Of a stretch of 57,822 nt of DNA, positions 3,481 to 57,671 are shown one piece after another (positions within the stretch are counted from its first letter, which is position 1; each line of letters opens with the position of its first letter). The notes beneath the pieces are model-generated. The model was not told the origin of the DNA and searched no databases. It saw only the letters and a program-made list of their open reading frames with translations. The DNA is taken from IMG/VR virus record IMGVR_UViG_3300043640_000164, positions 1 through 57,822 of that record; one strand, written 5' to 3'. Origin of the DNA: a virus. Position numbers and translations under genes: made by a program.

Positions 3481-3543
3481 ATGATGACGTTCGCGAAGTT
3501 CGTTGCGCGCCCGACGAGCAGTTGCACCCGAAGGGCGGAATGA
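3481..3543 (+). CDS. Leader-like mini-ORF with strong ribosome binding site
   Basis: A 20-aa reading frame starting at ATG 3481 behind an excellent ribosome binding site (AAGGAGG a few bases upstream) and ending with a TGA that overlaps the ATG of the next, larger gene (ATGA). It is cysteine- and arginine-containing but otherwise featureless. The simplest reading is a translational leader that delivers ribosomes to the gene at 3540, which has no good site of its own. A 15-codon TTG-started frame precedes it (3437-3484). Confidence 0.5.
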   Translation: MMTFAKFVARPTSSCTRRAE

Positions 3544-4223
3544 CCCCTCGTCCCAAGACGGCCGAGGAGCTACGGGTTGAACTCGCGACGCTCCGGGAGC
3601 GCTACGAGATGCTGGCCGCCGACGTCCGCGACGCGATCGACCAGGTGGAGGCGGGCGTCACCCCGAAGCTCGTGATGCGACGCCTGGCGACGAAAGTCAG
3701 CTTCGCTGCGGGGCGCCGTTGGACCAAGGACGACATCATCGCCAAGGCGTGGGAATGGTTTCATCGCTACGACGAGACGCCTGCCGCTTCGTCGTGGAGC
3801 CCGGCGCAGTTGAAGTCCAAAGACCCGGACCCGAAAGTGCTTGAGCGATGGCTGGACGGCGAGTGGCCGGGGACGACGACTGTCGTGCGCCGGTTCGACG
3901 GATCATGGAACAAGATGCTCGACGCCGCTGGGCTGCCCCACAACGCGCACAGCCGCGGGGCGAAGCGAGCAGTCAACGATCATGCGGGTCTGCCGCTGTG
4001 GACCGGCTGGGACCTGATCGAAGGGTTCCGGAGTCGCGCAGGGATCCCGTCGCAGGCCGAACTTGCTCGTCGGGCCAACGTGTCAGTGGGAACCGTACGA
4101 GGCCTGGAGACTGGGGCGAAGGACAACCCGACGCTGCGCGTCTTCCTCGCTATTGCGGTGGCCCTTCATGTCCCGCCTGCGGCGATGCTCGATCACACGG
4201 CGCCGGAGCCGGAGATCTCATGA
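3540..4223 (+). CDS. HNH-associated repeat plus XRE HTH protein
   Basis: A 227-aa DNA-binding protein of three parts. Residues about 5-40 form a coiled coil. Residues about 65-130 match the homing-endonuclease-associated repeat, with TKDDIIAKAWEW, a central tryptophan-rich stretch and RFDGSWNKMLDAAGL. Residues about 160-215 form an XRE-type helix-turn-helix (SQAELARRANVSVGTVRG). No nuclease catalytic motif is present, so it looks like a regulator that borrowed a DNA-recognition repeat from homing endonucleases. It is coupled to the upstream mini-ORF. Confidence 0.7.
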   Translation: MTPRPKTAEELRVELATLRERYEMLAADVRDAIDQVEAGVTPKLVMRRLATKVSFAAGRRWTKDDIIAKAWEWFHRYDETPAASSWSPAQLKSKDPDPKVLERWLDGEWPGTTTVVRRFDGSWNKMLDAAGLPHNAHSRGAKRAVNDHAGLPLWTGWDLIEGFRSRAGIPSQAELARRANVSVGTVRGLETGAKDNPTLRVFLAIAVALHVPPAAMLDHTAPEPEIS

Positions 4224-8758: not shown

Positions 8759-9245
8759 GCTGAGCGGCGGGCCGTGCTACTGCACGCGCGGCGTGAATAC
8801 GCACAACTGCCCGATCCACCGGAACGATGATGACCTGCTGGCGGCGGTGGCGAGGCGACGCTCGGACCCGGCGTTCAAGGCCCGCTTGGAGCGCATCCTC
8901 TCGGAGGAGAAGGCCATCCTCGATCGCCTCGCGCAGTCGGATGACGCCTCTGCTTCGAGCCGAGCGCAGGCGGCTCCCGCGTCGGGCCAGGAGCGAGGCG
9001 ACCAGCACGAGGGCGGTGACAAGGACGTGGACACCGACTGGGCTGAGTACGCCTTGCGTCAGCGCGTGCACGACTCTCGCGACAAGCAGCGGCAAGGCAC
9101 CGTCATTGCCATCTATCACCACTATCACCGCTACGGCGTCAACTGGGACGTCGGTGGCATCCGGGAGGGGATGCCCATGTTGATGCGCCCCGTCCTCGAC
9201 TCCGCGGGCGCGCCCGTCTTTCTGCCGAAGAAGGATGAGTCGTGA
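8751..9245 (+). CDS. Hypothetical protein upstream of integrase
   Basis: A 164-aa protein whose N terminus carries a cysteine cluster (CYC near residue 9 and NCPIH near residue 19, a common phage zinc motif). A charged helical middle and a tyrosine/histidine-rich segment (YHHYHRYGVNWDVGG) follow. It overlaps the preceding gene by 8 nt and the integrase start by GTGA, so integrase translation depends on it. Confidence 0.65.
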   Translation: MSELSGGPCYCTRGVNTHNCPIHRNDDDLLAAVARRRSDPAFKARLERILSEEKAILDRLAQSDDASASSRAQAAPASGQERGDQHEGGDKDVDTDWAEYALRQRVHDSRDKQRQGTVIAIYHHYHRYGVNWDVGGIREGMPMLMRPVLDSAGAPVFLPKKDES

Positions 9246-10783
9246 GCAAGCGCAACGCCATCGTCAAGCGCGGACCATCGGGCTTGGAGACCACGCCTCC
9301 GAAGGTCAAGCCCAGCGGCAAGACGTACGACATGGTCATCCGTGTCTCGCGTCGCGCCGGCCGCAAGGGCAGTACGTTCATCTCGCCCAAAGAGCAACGG
9401 GCGAAGTGCATCGCCTGGATTGAGGCCAACGGCCACACCCTGGGCCTGGACCACGACGAGACCGATTCCGTGTCCGGCAAGACGACCGACCGCGTAGGGC
9501 TCAAGTACGCCATCGAACGTGCGGTCGCCGGAGAGACCTCGGGCATCGTCGTGGCCAAGCTCGACCGGTTCTCGCGCAACGTGTCGTCCGGGCTGGCGGC
9601 CATCAAGCAGTTGGAGGACGCCGGCAAGGATCTCATCGCCGTCTCAGAGGGGATGACCGGCGGCGCCGAGGAGCGCACGAACCCCACCGCCAAGCTCATG
9701 CGGACGCTGTTCCTCGCCTTGGCCGAGTGGCAGTGGGACTCGTTTCAAGAAACCTGGAGCACGTCGCGCGAGAACCACATCGACCGCGGGGTTCACGCGG
9801 GCGTGCCGTTCGGCTACATGCGCGCCGAGTCGGGGACGCCGCTAATCATCGACGCGGAGGCAGCGCCCTACGTGCTGGCCATCTTCGTCCGCCGCGCCGC
9901 CGGGGAGTCCACGCCGTCGATCGCCCGCTGGCTGAACGACCTCGGGGTTCACACGGCGACGGGCGCACAGTGGACCGCGCAGCGCATCGTCCAGGTGATC
10001 AAGTCACGGACCTACGTCGGCGAGGCACGGTCGGGCAAAGACCTTGTCAACCCAGCAGCGCATCCAGCGATCGTCACTGAGATGCAGTGGGTGAACGCCA
10101 ACGCGGCGGGCACGTCGACCAACGACCGGCGCGTGAACGGGGCCTACCTCTTGCGCGGCGTCGTGCGGTGCACCAGCTGCGGAAGCAAGATGGCCGGGCT
10201 GACCGACCGCGGCCGTCGCTACCGCTGCCGCCGAACCTTCAGCTGGGGAACATGCCCGGCGCCGGCCAGCGTCACGGCAGACGAGGTGGAGAAGTACGTC
10301 ACCGCCGAGTTCTTCAAGCGGTACGTCCACGTCACCGTTGCCGGCGGCGGCGATGACGTCGGGCGCCTCAGCGCCGCCGAGGACGAGTTGGCCACGGCGC
10401 TGGAAGACCTACGTCGCTACCGCGACAACACGGTGGTGCGAGACGCGTTGGAGGAGGCCGGAGAAGGCCTCTTCGAGGAGGGCGTGACCGAGCGGGCCAA
10501 CCGCGTCAAGGCGGCTCGCGTCGCTCTTGGAACGATCAAGGCGCAGGCGACGGGCCTGCTCGTGCCCGATGACTTGGAAGACAACTGGGACACGTTGGAG
10601 ATCAACGACCGCCGAGAGCTAGTCGCCGCAGGGTTCGACGCTGTCATGGTCAAGCCCCCGGGCCGCAACCGCTGGGAGACGTCGCCCATCAGCGAGCGTG
10701 TCCGCGTCTTCGGGCGAGGCGAGGCGCCGGACGACCTGCCCGGGAAGGGTGGAGGTCGACTGATGCGCCCGGTCAACTTTTGA
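9242..10783 (+). CDS. int: Large serine recombinase (phage integrase)
   Basis: A 513-aa site-specific recombinase that would integrate and excise the phage. The N-terminal resolvase domain has the catalytic serine at about residue 36 (VIRVSRR) and the conserved KLDRFSRN arginines at 106-113. The recombinase domain follows (GVPFGYMR, then an SIARWLN helix-turn-helix near 225-260). The zinc ribbon has Cys310, Cys313, Cys329 and Cys338, with a coiled coil downstream (about 365-430). Its length matches large serine integrases. The GTG start overlaps the upstream TGA. The gene ends facing the cytosine methyltransferase; the 98-bp gap is the natural place for attP. Confidence 0.95.
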   Translation: MSKRNAIVKRGPSGLETTPPKVKPSGKTYDMVIRVSRRAGRKGSTFISPKEQRAKCIAWIEANGHTLGLDHDETDSVSGKTTDRVGLKYAIERAVAGETSGIVVAKLDRFSRNVSSGLAAIKQLEDAGKDLIAVSEGMTGGAEERTNPTAKLMRTLFLALAEWQWDSFQETWSTSRENHIDRGVHAGVPFGYMRAESGTPLIIDAEAAPYVLAIFVRRAAGESTPSIARWLNDLGVHTATGAQWTAQRIVQVIKSRTYVGEARSGKDLVNPAAHPAIVTEMQWVNANAAGTSTNDRRVNGAYLLRGVVRCTSCGSKMAGLTDRGRRYRCRRTFSWGTCPAPASVTADEVEKYVTAEFFKRYVHVTVAGGGDDVGRLSAAEDELATALEDLRRYRDNTVVRDALEEAGEGLFEEGVTERANRVKAARVALGTIKAQATGLLVPDDLEDNWDTLEINDRRELVAAGFDAVMVKPPGRNRWETSPISERVRVFGRGEAPDDLPGKGGGRLMRPVNF

Positions 10784-42559: not shown

Positions 42560-42926
42560 CGTCGGGTCGGGCGATCGGCCGGCCCCAGCGCTCGGGGGCC
42601 TGGCGTTCCAGCAGCCACGCGGCGGCCTTCCAGTCCTTGGCGGCGGCGGTGGCGATGATCGCCACGTTGCGGGACTCCGCTTCGGCGCGGGCCTGGTCGA
42701 CGCGCTCGCGGAAGGCGCGATACGGCGCGTCGACCGCCTTGGTACCAGTGGCGTCGCCGCGGGCCATCCATCCGTAGAACGTGCGCTTGGTGATGCCCGC
42801 CACCGCGGCGGCAGTCTCGACGTAGCCGCCGGAACGCAGCACCGCCACGATCCGATCCGCGCTCTCGTCGGTCAGCTTGGTGGGGCGGTGCCCGCGGACG
42901 GGAGCCGGGGCCGGGTCATCAGCCAT
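42465..42926 (-). CDS. terS: Terminase small subunit
   Basis: A 153-aa protein with an N-terminal helix-turn-helix (ADRIVAVLRSGGYVETAAAV, then ITKRTFYGWMARG), a coiled central helix (YRAFRERVDQARAEAESRNV) and a proline/acidic end. This is the usual shape of small subunits that recognise the packaging site and recruit the motor. It lies directly before the large subunit and its start overlaps the methyltransferase stop by one base. Confidence 0.85.
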   Translation of the reverse strand: MADDPAPAPVRGHRPTKLTDESADRIVAVLRSGGYVETAAAVAGITKRTFYGWMARGDATGTKAVDAPYRAFRERVDQARAEAESRNVAIIATAAAKDWKAAAWLLERQAPERWGRPIARPDDAPHVAPSTDPLDALDAQVVELAPRRAGRKS

Positions 42927-44098
42927 CAGGCGCGCTCCGCTTCGAGGCCGGTGTGACGCTCCCAGCGATCCACGATCACATCGCAGTAGCCGGCGTCAAG
43001 CTCCAGGCCGAAGCAGGTCCGCCCGACCTTCTCGCACGCGATGAGCGTGGAGCCGGAACCGAGGAACGGGTCGGCGACGACGCACCCGGCCGGCGCCCAG
43101 CGGTCGAGAATTTCCGCGAGCAAAGGTGTCGGCTTCTGCGTGGGATGCACGCGGTTGCTTGCCTCCGCACCGAACGCGCCGTACATGAAGAACCGCAGAA
43201 GGTCGCGCTTGTGCGGGCGCCTGCTCCAGAGAAGTTCGAAGCCGCTGCCCGGCGTGATGTCCGTGGCCTCGTTGCGCTTATCCCAGACCAGCCAAGACCC
43301 ATCGCCATCGTTTGCACTTAGGGTGCGGCGGTAGTAGTCGGCACCGAACCAGAACTGCTCAGCCACCGAGGAGAAGTAGGTCGACAGCGGCGCGGCGTCG
43401 AAGGGTTGGTCATCGCCGGCCACGGGACGGTAGATCCGCTGCGGCTGGTCACCCAACAGTCCCCTGCCGGGCCGGTTCGGACGCTTGGTGTAGTTGGTGT
43501 CTAGGCTGATCCCGTACGGCGGATCGGTGAGCACGCAGCCGACATCCACCCCGGCATAGAGCCGGTCAAGGTTCGCCGGGTTAGCAGAGTCACCGCACAG
43601 CAGCCGATGCTCACCCAACATGTAGAGGTCGCCGAGCTTCGTCCGAGGGTCCTCGGGCACGTCGCCCGGGGCGGTGTCGTCCTGGCTGGATGCACCACCG
43701 GCGTCCGCCAGCAACGCATCCAGATCCATGGGCTCGTAGCCCGTGCCGTCGAGGTTGGGCAGCGATGCCAGTAGAGCCGTGAGTTCGCCATCGTCGTAGC
43801 CGGCGACGTCGTTGGAGCGGTTATCGACCAGGACGATCCGGGCTGCCTGGTCCTCGTCTACGTCCACGAACGTGGCGGCCACGTCCTGCCAGCCCAACTC
43901 GCGCGCGGCGGCGAGCGTGTGGTTTCCGGCGAGCACCTCAGAGGTGCGCCGGTTGACGACGATTGGCCGGTACTGACCATTGATCGCGAGTGAGCTTTTG
44001 ATCGCCTCTACTGAGCCACGGCGCGGGTTGCGTCCATACGCACGCAGTGATGTCACTGGCACGCGCAGATCGGAGAGGGTGTCGGGAATCTCGGACAT
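42926..44098 (-). CDS. ParB-domain DNA methyltransferase (adenine N6 or cytosine N4)
   Basis: A 390-aa protein with an N-terminal ParB/sulfiredoxin-type domain (about 12-100: NPRRGSVEAIKSSLAINGQY, GNHTLAAARELGW) and a class beta-type methyltransferase domain with DPPYG (192-196) before FLGSGST (355-361) and HPTQKP between. Such fusions are common in phages and modify phage DNA to resist restriction. The ATG at 44098 is chosen over 44155 because the latter overlaps a likely promoter of the divergent HARE-HTH gene. It lies at the head of the late operon, before terminase. Confidence 0.9.
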   Translation of the reverse strand: MSEIPDTLSDLRVPVTSLRAYGRNPRRGSVEAIKSSLAINGQYRPIVVNRRTSEVLAGNHTLAAARELGWQDVAATFVDVDEDQAARIVLVDNRSNDVAGYDDGELTALLASLPNLDGTGYEPMDLDALLADAGGASSQDDTAPGDVPEDPRTKLGDLYMLGEHRLLCGDSANPANLDRLYAGVDVGCVLTDPPYGISLDTNYTKRPNRPGRGLLGDQPQRIYRPVAGDDQPFDAAPLSTYFSSVAEQFWFGADYYRRTLSANDGDGSWLVWDKRNEATDITPGSGFELLWSRRPHKRDLLRFFMYGAFGAEASNRVHPTQKPTPLLAEILDRWAPAGCVVADPFLGSGSTLIACEKVGRTCFGLELDAGYCDVIVDRWERHTGLEAERA

Positions 44099-44112
44099 CT
44101 GTGGGAAATCGC

Positions 44113-44145
44113 TTGACTTTCTGGGCGCGCCGAGCGAGTTATGTG
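44113..44145 (+). promoter_or_regulatory. Putative promoter of the HARE-HTH gene
   Basis: TTGACT at 44113-44118 and TTATGT at 44139-44144, with a 20-nt spacer, longer than ideal. It is the only TTGAC sequence upstream of the gene at 44197, and it lies over the start of the divergent methyltransferase gene, which could couple control of the two. Confidence 0.4.
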
Positions 44146-44196
44146 TTCGCGGCATTTGGGCCGCGGTACCAAAACCCCATCAGCGAGGGACGAACC

Positions 44197-52595: not shown

Positions 52596-52951
52596 CCATG
52601 GACTACGACTACGACGAGATGACGCCGGACGGCCGGTATGTCATCCGGCGCGTGACGGTGCCCGATCCGCTGTACGGCAAGACCCATGACTGGTACGTGT
52701 CGCTCCCGGCCGGCGACCGCTGGCTTCGCTATGGCCGCACCACGAACCCGATGCCGACCAACCGCTACATGCCGCTCGACGGCGACCGCGCATACGAGAA
52801 GTTGCGTCATGCCCTAGGTCGCGTCGGCCAGCCATGGGCGACGGTCGAGCAGGTGCCATCGGTCACGGAGATCGCCGAAGCACAGGGCGGGGTCGCCGTA
52901 GCGATCACGAACGATGAGGTCTCCATCCTCCACGACGGCCGGAAGTCGTAA
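52592..52951 (+). CDS. Hypothetical protein
   Basis: A 119-aa protein (117 if ATG 52598 is used) with an aspartate/tyrosine-rich start (YDYDEM), a strand-rich core (RYVIRRVTVPDPLYG, HDWYVSLPAG) and a helix. The GTG start overlaps the upstream TGA. No family is recognised. Confidence 0.6.
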   Translation: MTMDYDYDEMTPDGRYVIRRVTVPDPLYGKTHDWYVSLPAGDRWLRYGRTTNPMPTNRYMPLDGDRAYEKLRHALGRVGQPWATVEQVPSVTEIAEAQGGVAVAITNDEVSILHDGRKS

Positions 52952-53268
52952 TGCAGCCGCTCCCCTTCCCACCCACCCAGGTCCAGTACGACAACTGGTA
53001 CGCGTCGGGCGAGCAGCGTGTAGCTCTCGATCCCGACTTCTACCAGTCCGATCTCATGGACGGAAACATCATGGTCCTGACCGCGTTCGCGATTGAGGCC
53101 AAGTACCCGCACTTGCGCCGACGACTGACCGAGGTCGTGCCCGATTGCGTCGAGCGCGCCATGGCTGACCTCGGGATGTTCGGCGGCGCCGGGCATCTCG
53201 CTGAGCAGGTGGGGTTGCCCGCCGATGAAGTACAGGAACTGATGATGGGCACGTTCGCGAAGTCATGA
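52951..53268 (+). CDS. Hypothetical protein
   Basis: A 105-aa protein: proline-rich start, then an aromatic helix (YDNWYASGEQRVALDPDFY), then long helices (LRRRLTEVVPDCVERAM) ending in GLPADEVQELM. It overlaps the upstream stop by TAATG and is followed immediately by the tRNA-like gene. Function is unknown. Confidence 0.6.
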   Translation: MQPLPFPPTQVQYDNWYASGEQRVALDPDFYQSDLMDGNIMVLTAFAIEAKYPHLRRRLTEVVPDCVERAMADLGMFGGAGHLAEQVGLPADEVQELMMGTFAKS

Positions 53269-53274
53269 TCTCCT

Positions 53275-53350
53275 GCCGGCGTCGTGCTAAAGGCCTAAGG
53301 ACACCCCACATCTATCCGGGGAAATGCCGGTTCGAGTCCGGCCGCCGGCC
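53275..53350 (+). tRNA. tRNA-like gene with irregular anticodon arm
   Basis: A 7-bp perfect acceptor stem (53275-53281 with 53343-53349), T8, a D-arm with GG in an 11-nt loop (53284-53302), and a perfect T-arm (gccgg-ttcgagt-ccggc, 53326-53342) give a convincing tRNA outline of 76 nt without CCA. The anticodon arm is odd: four C-G pairs (53304-53307 with 53318-53321), an A-C mismatch, then an 8-nt loop (catctatc). The best register with a T33 gives the triplet CTA (amber), but loop size makes this uncertain. It fills the 104-nt gap 53269-53372. Confidence 0.65.
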
Positions 53351-53372
53351 CTCACCAACCACCAACATCTAG

Positions 53373-53747
53373 ATGACCAACACCAACAACAACGAGCGGG
53401 ACTTCCGCGACTTCTACGGCTTGCCCGATGACGAGCCGCTGCCTCCTCGCCTGGGTGAGGTGACGATTCTGCCACCCACGGTGCAGCAGGCCGGCGACCC
53501 GCGCGGCGCGGACGCCACGTGGACGTTGATGCCCGCGCCCGCGGGGGTGTGCAGCCAATGCGCGCGTGACCATGAGCCCGAAGCGCCACACGACGCTCTC
53601 TCGCTGCACTACCAGGTGGTGTTCAACGCCGAGCATGGGCGCGCGCCCACGTGGGCCGACGCCATGGCCCACTGCGCGCCCGGGGTGCGCGCCCTGTGGA
53701 CCGAGCGCCTGGTCGCGCTCGGGGAGACCGTCGAGAGAAGCTCATGA
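53373..53747 (+). CDS. Conserved phage protein with Cys/His motif
   Basis: A 124-aa protein. After a flexible acidic start comes a compact region: CSQCARDHEPEAPHDALSLH, YQVVFNAEHGRAPTWADAMA, HCAPGVRALWTERL. This ordered CxxC...H...HC pattern is shared by many actinophage proteins of unknown role and suggests one zinc site. The ATG lies 23 nt after the tRNA-like gene. It is coupled downstream by ATGA. Confidence 0.75.
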   Translation: MTNTNNNERDFRDFYGLPDDEPLPPRLGEVTILPPTVQQAGDPRGADATWTLMPAPAGVCSQCARDHEPEAPHDALSLHYQVVFNAEHGRAPTWADAMAHCAPGVRALWTERLVALGETVERSS

Positions 53748-57203: not shown

Positions 57204-57671
57204 ATGGACACCAACTACCTGATGCGCTTCGTGCGCGAGTCCAACGCCATCGAGCGCATCCTGCGCCTGCCGACCGGGGACGAGATCGCCCAGCACGTTG
57301 TACTCCTAGGCCGTGAGCGCCTGACCGTGCGCGACATTGAGGACTTTGTTCACCACGTCGCGGACGCCCGGCTGCGGTGCAGGGCCGGGATGGACGTGTT
57401 CATCAACGGCACGCCGCCGTACATTCCCCCGCCGGGCGGGGCCGACATCGAGACTGCGCTGACCTCGCTGTTGGAGGACATCAACCTTGCGCGCCTGACC
57501 CCGTGGGAGGCGCACTGCGAGTACGAGACCCTGCACCCGTTCACCGATGGCAACGGCCGCTCTGGTCGCGCCATCTGGTTGTGGCACATGCAATCGCTCG
57601 GACGCGACCCCTTCCGGTTCTCATTCCTGCACGAGTTCTACTACCAGTCGTTGGCGGGGTCCCGGACATGA
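57204..57671 (+). CDS. fic: Fic-domain protein (AMP-transferase type)
   Basis: A 155-aa Fic protein with the full active-site loop HPFTDGNGRSGR (111-122), which matches HPFx(D/E)GNGRxxR, so it should transfer AMP (or another nucleotide moiety) to a target hydroxyl. SNAIER at 13-18 resembles the inhibitory helix motif (S/T)xxxE(G/N) placed at the N terminus, with Arg where Gly/Asn is usual, suggesting altered self-inhibition. It has a strong ribosome site (agaagga) and is ATGA-coupled to the gene crossing the joint, a possible partner. In a phage it may modify host proteins or act as a toxin-antitoxin-like module. Confidence 0.85.
   Translation: MDTNYLMRFVRESNAIERILRLPTGDEIAQHVVLLGRERLTVRDIEDFVHHVADARLRCRAGMDVFINGTPPYIPPPGGADIETALTSLLEDINLARLTPWEAHCEYETLHPFTDGNGRSGRAIWLWHMQSLGRDPFRFSFLHEFYYQSLAGSRT

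What the first reader, a model, noticed from the sequence alone, without database searches (positions are those of the whole stretch)
53275..53350. tRNA-like gene with an apparent 8-nt anticodon loop
Acceptor and T-arm are perfect and the D-arm fair, but the anticodon arm has four C-G pairs, an A-C mismatch and an 8-nt loop. Enlarged anticodon loops occur in frameshift-suppressor tRNAs. The best T33 register gives CTA, an amber anticodon. Both ideas are interesting because eight gene junctions of this phage end in TAG followed closely by an in-frame start.
Basis: partly seen in the sequence, partly recalled or inferred. Interest (0 to 1): 0.6.

Follow-up and report, generated by a model that had tools for sequence, protein, structure and literature searches.

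The report
Odd single tRNA gene in soil phage
A phage carries one real but misshapen transfer-RNA gene whose codon-reading loop has an extra base; it most likely does not read codons normally, and nothing found here ties it to the phage's stop codons.

Summary
Window 53275-53350 (+) is a tRNA-derived gene: Rfam tRNA model 29.4 bits against a cut-off of 29, E 9.9e-6 for the whole record, and 18 of 20 exact matches to its 3' half in bacterial genomes lie in called tRNA-Leu or tRNA-Thr genes. ARAGORN does not call it. Enumerated cloverleaves give at most 3 of 5 anticodon-stem pairs with a 7-nt loop and 4 of 5 with an 8-nt loop, CAUCUAUC, closed by A-C. CUA is the only register with U33.

The functional reading is weak. 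UCUA in an 8-nt loop matches laboratory-evolved UAGN suppressors, but U33, A37 and the 31-39 pair found there are absent. In-frame TAG junctions exist (7 of 9 within 40 nt), but kin phages without a detected tRNA also have them (21 of 47). No kin record or viral contig searched carries this gene, so there is no comparative evidence of function.

Best reading: an atypical, probably decaying phage tRNA with an intact acceptor/T half and a damaged decoding half. Interest is modest. An apparently permuted tRNA in Microbacterium phages, met in passing, may be worth more.

The parts
53275..53350 (+). tRNA-derived gene (76 nt, no encoded CCA)
   Evidence: RF00005 29.4 bits, E 9.9e-6 per record
53275..53281 (+). 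acceptor stem, 5' strand GCCGGCG
   Evidence: 7/7 pairs with 53343-53349; same 5' strand in most cellular tRNA-Thr/Leu genes printed that share the 3' half
53284..53302 (+). D arm with one G-G mismatch or one bulged G; loop holds GG
   Evidence: cmscan alignment, constrained fold
53304..53321 (+). anticodon arm: CCCC/GGGG, A-C, 8-nt loop 53309-53316 (CAUCUAUC); CUA at 53312-53314, UCUA at 53311-53314
   Evidence: enumeration of cloverleaves
53326..53342 (+). T arm GCCGG-UUCGAGU-CCGGC, 5/5 pairs
   Evidence: exact 23-nt match of T arm plus acceptor in 20 genome-contig stretches
53343..53350 (+). acceptor stem, 3' strand, and discriminator C73
   Evidence: sequence
53269..53372 (+). 104-bp intergenic gap that holds the tRNA-like gene
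   Evidence: median same-strand gap in the window is -1; 18 of 90 same-strand junctions have gaps of 60 or more
52951..53268 (+). upstream gene, 105 aa, no family hit
53373..53747 (+). downstream gene, 124 aa, with relatives in 21 viral-contig loci; TAG lies directly before its ATG; no SD-like motif

Best explanation
A single phage-borne tRNA gene of bacterial type that keeps an intact acceptor/T-arm half but has a drifted D and anticodon half (an extra base or mismatch in each). Inferred: it is co-transcribed in the rightward gene block, could be trimmed by RNase P and RNase Z and given CCA by the host, but does not decode efficiently. It is a relic, or at most an RNA boundary between two genes. 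Shown: tRNA identity of the 3' half, the 8-nt loop, absence from the kin phages searched. Not shown: transcription, processing, charging.
For: RF00005 29.4 bits, the lowest of the 24 above-cut-off tRNA matches in the virus records; the other 23 score 34.5-72.8. ARAGORN 0 genes. 12/12 pairs in acceptor and T arms against 4/5 in the anticodon stem and an interrupted D stem. 18 of 20 exact 3'-half matches lie in called tRNA-Leu (12) or tRNA-Thr (6) genes. No tRNA in 22 of 23 portal-bearing kin records, the exception being the most distant with a different match; none in full scans of three long ones; 0 contigs for three loop, stem or D-arm patterns in viral contigs. C73 without G-1 and a pyrimidine at 37 in the CUA register (sequence; the identity rules are recalled).
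Against: With only two mismatched positions, their absence from the acceptor/T arms is no proof of decay (my estimate about 0.17 by chance, not a tool result). The gene fills a gap in a tightly packed block, and the D-loop GG and T-loop motif survive, so it may still work. Without relatives neither decay nor constraint can be measured.
Confidence: 0.52

Rival explanations
1. A natural amber or UAGN (+1) suppressor tRNA: the 8-nt loop presents U33.5-CUA and reads UAG or UAGN.
For: CUA is the only register preceded by U. UCUA in an 8-nt loop is what selections for UAGN decoding converged on (PMC4764823, passages and section 7). 7 of 9 close TAG junctions in the window are in frame with the next start.
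Against: A33, U37 and A-C at 31-39 contradict three anticodon-arm features of those evolved tRNAs: U33 and A37 unchanged, G31-C39. Kin without a detected tRNA use TAG as much and also have in-frame TAG junctions, 21 of 47. Homologous junctions in kin mostly end in other stops or other spacings. C73 would be unusual for a charged amber suppressor (recalled).
Confidence: 0.1
2. A non-decoding tRNA-like element: a processing signal that cuts the mRNA between the two genes, or a decoy for host tRNA-cutting defences.
For: The half read by RNase P, RNase Z and the CCA enzyme (recalled) is perfect while the decoding half is not. Phage tRNAs with altered anticodon loops have been proposed to escape host anticodon nucleases (PMC10264068, passages). 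The gene ends 22 nt before a start codon in a 104-bp gap.
Against: Not found in kin. Of 21 relatives of the downstream gene, one (L189) has a tRNA directly upstream, and it is canonical. No defence target or processing is shown.
Confidence: 0.23
3. Cis regulation: the loop's CAUCUA pairs with UAGAUG at 53370-53375 and masks the start codon of the downstream gene.
For: Perfect 6-nt complement; a 19-nt C/A-rich linker; no SD-like motif before that start.
Against: Random decamers of the window reach such a match in 1.3% of draws and shuffled loops in 1.9%; 4 of 95 starts in the window hold a complement to the loop. Noticed after the fact.
Confidence: 0.05
4. Chance tRNA-likeness, or an attachment-site relic of a host tRNA 3' end.
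For: ARAGORN finds nothing; the phage has a large serine-type recombinase at 9242-10783.
Against: E 9.9e-6; a full 7/7 acceptor with both strands at the right spacing is not expected of a site that copies only the 3' half; the recombinase gene is far away in the record.
Confidence: 0.05

Closest known systems
Cellular tRNA-Thr and tRNA-Leu genes with acceptor GCCGGCG (e.g. Micromonospora musae tRNA-Thr, L151)
   Same: Identical 23-nt T arm plus acceptor 3' strand; same acceptor 5' strand GCCGGCG and U8 in most of those printed
   Different: Those have standard D arms and are called by ARAGORN with an anticodon; the window gene differs throughout the D and anticodon arms
Laboratory-evolved UAGN-decoding tRNAs (PMC4764823)
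   Same: 8-nt loop, UCUA at 33.5-36
   Different: Those keep U33 and A37 and gain G31-C39; the window gene has A33, U37 and A-C
Phage tRNAs with anticodon-loop changes proposed to escape host nucleases (PMC10264068)
   Same: Phage tRNA with an altered anticodon loop
   Different: The passages read concern mutations in tRNAs of known isotype and mention no enlarged loop; here the isotype is unclear
tRNA-dependent lysogeny (PMC10865867)
   Same: Probably temperate phage with a tRNA gene
   Different: That uses a tyrosine integrase and a working cognate tRNA; here the recombinase is of the serine type and the tRNA looks defective

Membership tests
tRNA gene (RF00005) | score above the family's cut-off | tested here: met
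   29.4 against 29 bits; barely
tRNA gene (RF00005) | called by a tRNA finder | tested here: not met
   ARAGORN default 0 genes; relaxed thresholds give 702 calls and are uninformative
tRNA gene (RF00005) | 7-nt anticodon loop on a 5-pair stem | tested here: not met
tRNA gene (RF00005) | transcribed, processed, aminoacylated | not testable with these tools
   needs RNA data
UAGN / +1 frameshift suppressor tRNA | 8-nt anticodon loop with UCUA | tested here: met
   against PMC4764823
UAGN / +1 frameshift suppressor tRNA | U33, A37 and a 31-39 pair | tested here: not met
   A33, U37, A-C
Amber suppressor tRNA of a recoded phage | TAG use that sets this phage apart from kin without the tRNA | tested here: not met
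   TAG share 21% against 15-52%; in-frame junctions 7/9 against 21/47
Amber suppressor tRNA of a recoded phage | readthrough products | not testable with these tools
   needs proteomics or reporters
tRNA-dependent lysogeny | tyrosine integrase with attP at a host-type tRNA core | tested here: inconclusive
   serine-type recombinase domains at 9242-10783; not every gene was scanned for a second integrase

The most novel reading that the evidence does not exclude
A natural four-base-reading (UAGN) phage tRNA: U33.5 supplies the U-turn that A33 cannot, so the tRNA shifts ribosomes at UAG stops and lets some amber-terminated phage genes continue.
Probability: 0.05. Interest if true: 0.85.

Novelty: new variant of a known kind. 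Interest (0 to 1): 0.3.

Why it matters
If functional, it would be a natural example of an enlarged anticodon loop of the kind reached by selection for UAGN decoding. If a relic, it is an ordinary case of tRNA decay in a phage genome, and a caution that Rfam in its sensitive mode and ARAGORN disagree on such genes.

Tried and rejected
Relatives by protein or DNA: the upstream protein P0002, the terminase alone, 901 bp around the gene and the right 17.8 kb gave no usable kin. The capsid alignment and the portal alignment did, but those kin share mainly the structural module. A genome-contig scan with the portal alignment found nothing.

TAG-junction idea: rejected on the kin control; stop codons at homologous junctions were also read. 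TAG use in the window is 19 of 95 genes by one caller and 20 of 97 by its retrained version; the calls are mine, not from a published gene finder.

Loop-to-start-codon pairing: kept only as a weak rival. Promoter and terminator scan: none found. A 24-nt T-arm/acceptor pattern with up to 3 mismatches occurs once in the window. Literature: no natural phage tRNA with an 8-nt loop was seen in the listings; the library holds open-licence papers only.

Full report
What is there. The window is a virus record of 57,822 bases, G+C 68%. Family searches show a contractile-tail phage (terminase, portal, capsid, sheath, baseplate wedge) with a large serine-type recombinase at 9242-10783 and a helix-turn-helix gene at 3540-4223, so probably temperate. 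At 53275-53350 (+) the Rfam tRNA model matches end to end with 29.4 bits against a gathering score of 29; over the whole record the E-value is 9.9e-6. The default-filter scan missed it and ARAGORN reports no tRNA.

Anatomy. With acceptor (7/7) and T stem (5/5) fixed, I enumerated D and anticodon arms. No 7-nt loop has more than 3 of 5 stem pairs. The 8-nt loop CAUCUAUC has 4 of 5, with A-C next to the loop; a 10-nt reading shares the same four C-G pairs, and a 9-nt reading needs an 8-nt variable region. Only CUA is preceded by U. The constrained cloverleaf has -30.4 kcal/mol, a non-cloverleaf fold -30.8, and the fold energy is ordinary for the composition (z -0.99). The D arm has a G-G mismatch or a bulged G. 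No CCA is encoded; the discriminator is C. That C73 goes with tRNA-His, and there with G-1, is recalled; here position -1 is T.

Descent. The 23-nt T arm plus acceptor 3' strand occurs exactly in 20 stretches of genome contigs. ARAGORN calls a tRNA over 18 of the 20, 12 Leu and 6 Thr; the other two, L140 and L149, have no call. The acceptor 5' strand GCCGGCG is also shared by most of those printed. So the gene derives from, or converges on, ordinary bacterial tRNA, and its short variable region is of the Thr-like class. The D and anticodon arms do not resemble those genes.

Kin. Portal and capsid alignments brought in kin from viral records and a prophage in a genome of the phylum of Micromonospora. 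They share mainly the structural module, at roughly 28-61% protein identity, not the part that holds the tRNA. RF00005 finds no tRNA in G001 or in 21 of 22 further portal-bearing records; the exception, G041, is the most distant (28% portal identity) and its match is a different, longer one. Most of these records are fragments. Sensitive Rfam scans of three long kin and of 60 kb around the prophage show no tRNA; ARAGORN called a tRNA-Ser inside the prophage's coding region that the Rfam scan does not list. Three DNA patterns from the loop, stem and D arm have no match in viral contigs. The gene is therefore known from one genome, and conservation cannot be used for or against function.

Neighbour gene. 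The downstream 124-aa protein has relatives in 21 viral-contig loci. One of them, L189, has a canonical tRNA directly upstream (54.2 bits); I take this as coincidence.

The amber link. In my gene of 95 genes end in TAG. Of TAG junctions with a gap of 0-40 nt, 7 of 9 are in frame with the next start; for other stops 3 of 9 (Fisher p 0.15; the 7 of 9 against one third, binomial p 0.008). The same kind of caller on ten kin records or stretches gives TAG shares of 15-52% (window 21%) and in-frame TAG junctions in 21 of 47, although no tRNA was found in nine of them and only the doubtful ARAGORN call in the tenth. At homologous junctions kin use various stops. So TAG junctions are a habit of the group and need no tRNA.

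The frameshift link. Selections for UAGN decoding converged on an 8-nt loop with UCUA (PMC4764823; passages and section 7 read). The window loop has UCUA in that place. The same paper reports no change at U33 and A37 and a gain of G31-C39; the window has A33, U37 and A-C. It resembles such tRNAs in one feature set and fails the other, so I do not file it as a member.

Verdict. A real, atypical tRNA gene with a sound upper half and a poor decoding half, in one phage. Most likely it does not decode (0.52). A non-decoding role is next (0.23). A suppressor is possible but unsupported (0.10). Papers seen only as passages: PMC10865867, PMC10264068 and PMC10085705; others only in search listings.

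In passing. Microbacterium phages Floof, Percival and Gretchen carry, next to an annotated tRNA, an unannotated tRNA-like stretch whose 3' half precedes its 5' half. In Floof the rejoined halves fold as a cloverleaf; in Percival the minimum-energy fold is not one. One acceptor position is G-G in Floof and A-A in Percival, a mismatch in both, which speaks against selection on that pair. Two truncated neighbours would explain it as well.

Noticed in passing
L155:396-473 (Microbacterium phage Floof); same place in L216 and L217 (Percival, Gretchen): Unannotated candidate circularly permuted tRNA: 3' half with CCA, 3 nt, then a 5' half with a perfect D arm; anticodon stem 5/5 across the halves, acceptor 6/7. 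Two truncated adjacent tRNAs are the dull alternative.
   Followed up: partly
L218:150-460 (Arthrobacter phage Atuin, OK040794.2): Between annotated tRNA-Thr and tRNA-Phe lie unannotated tRNA halves separated by inserts, as if tRNAs were interrupted in the anticodon region; ARAGORN's intron mode did not call them.
   Followed up: partly
L158:277-335 (Brevundimonas phage Marchewka, ON529851.1): Unannotated tRNA-like stretch with a GCCGGCG acceptor and a T arm but only about 24 nt between them, about 20 nt before an annotated gene.
   Followed up: no
window 53366-53375: 10-nt palindrome CATCTAGATG spans the TAG and ATG before the downstream gene; part of it repeats, and part complements, the anticodon loop.
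   Followed up: partly
window 42926-44155: One ORF matches both ParB-like and DNA methyltransferase families.
   Followed up: no
window 57204-57671: Fic/DOC family protein near the right end of the record.
   Followed up: no
L149 around 900-990 (Hyphomonas polymorpha): A 3' half that looks like a tRNA-Leu with no tRNA call over it, perhaps an integration-site copy.
   Followed up: no
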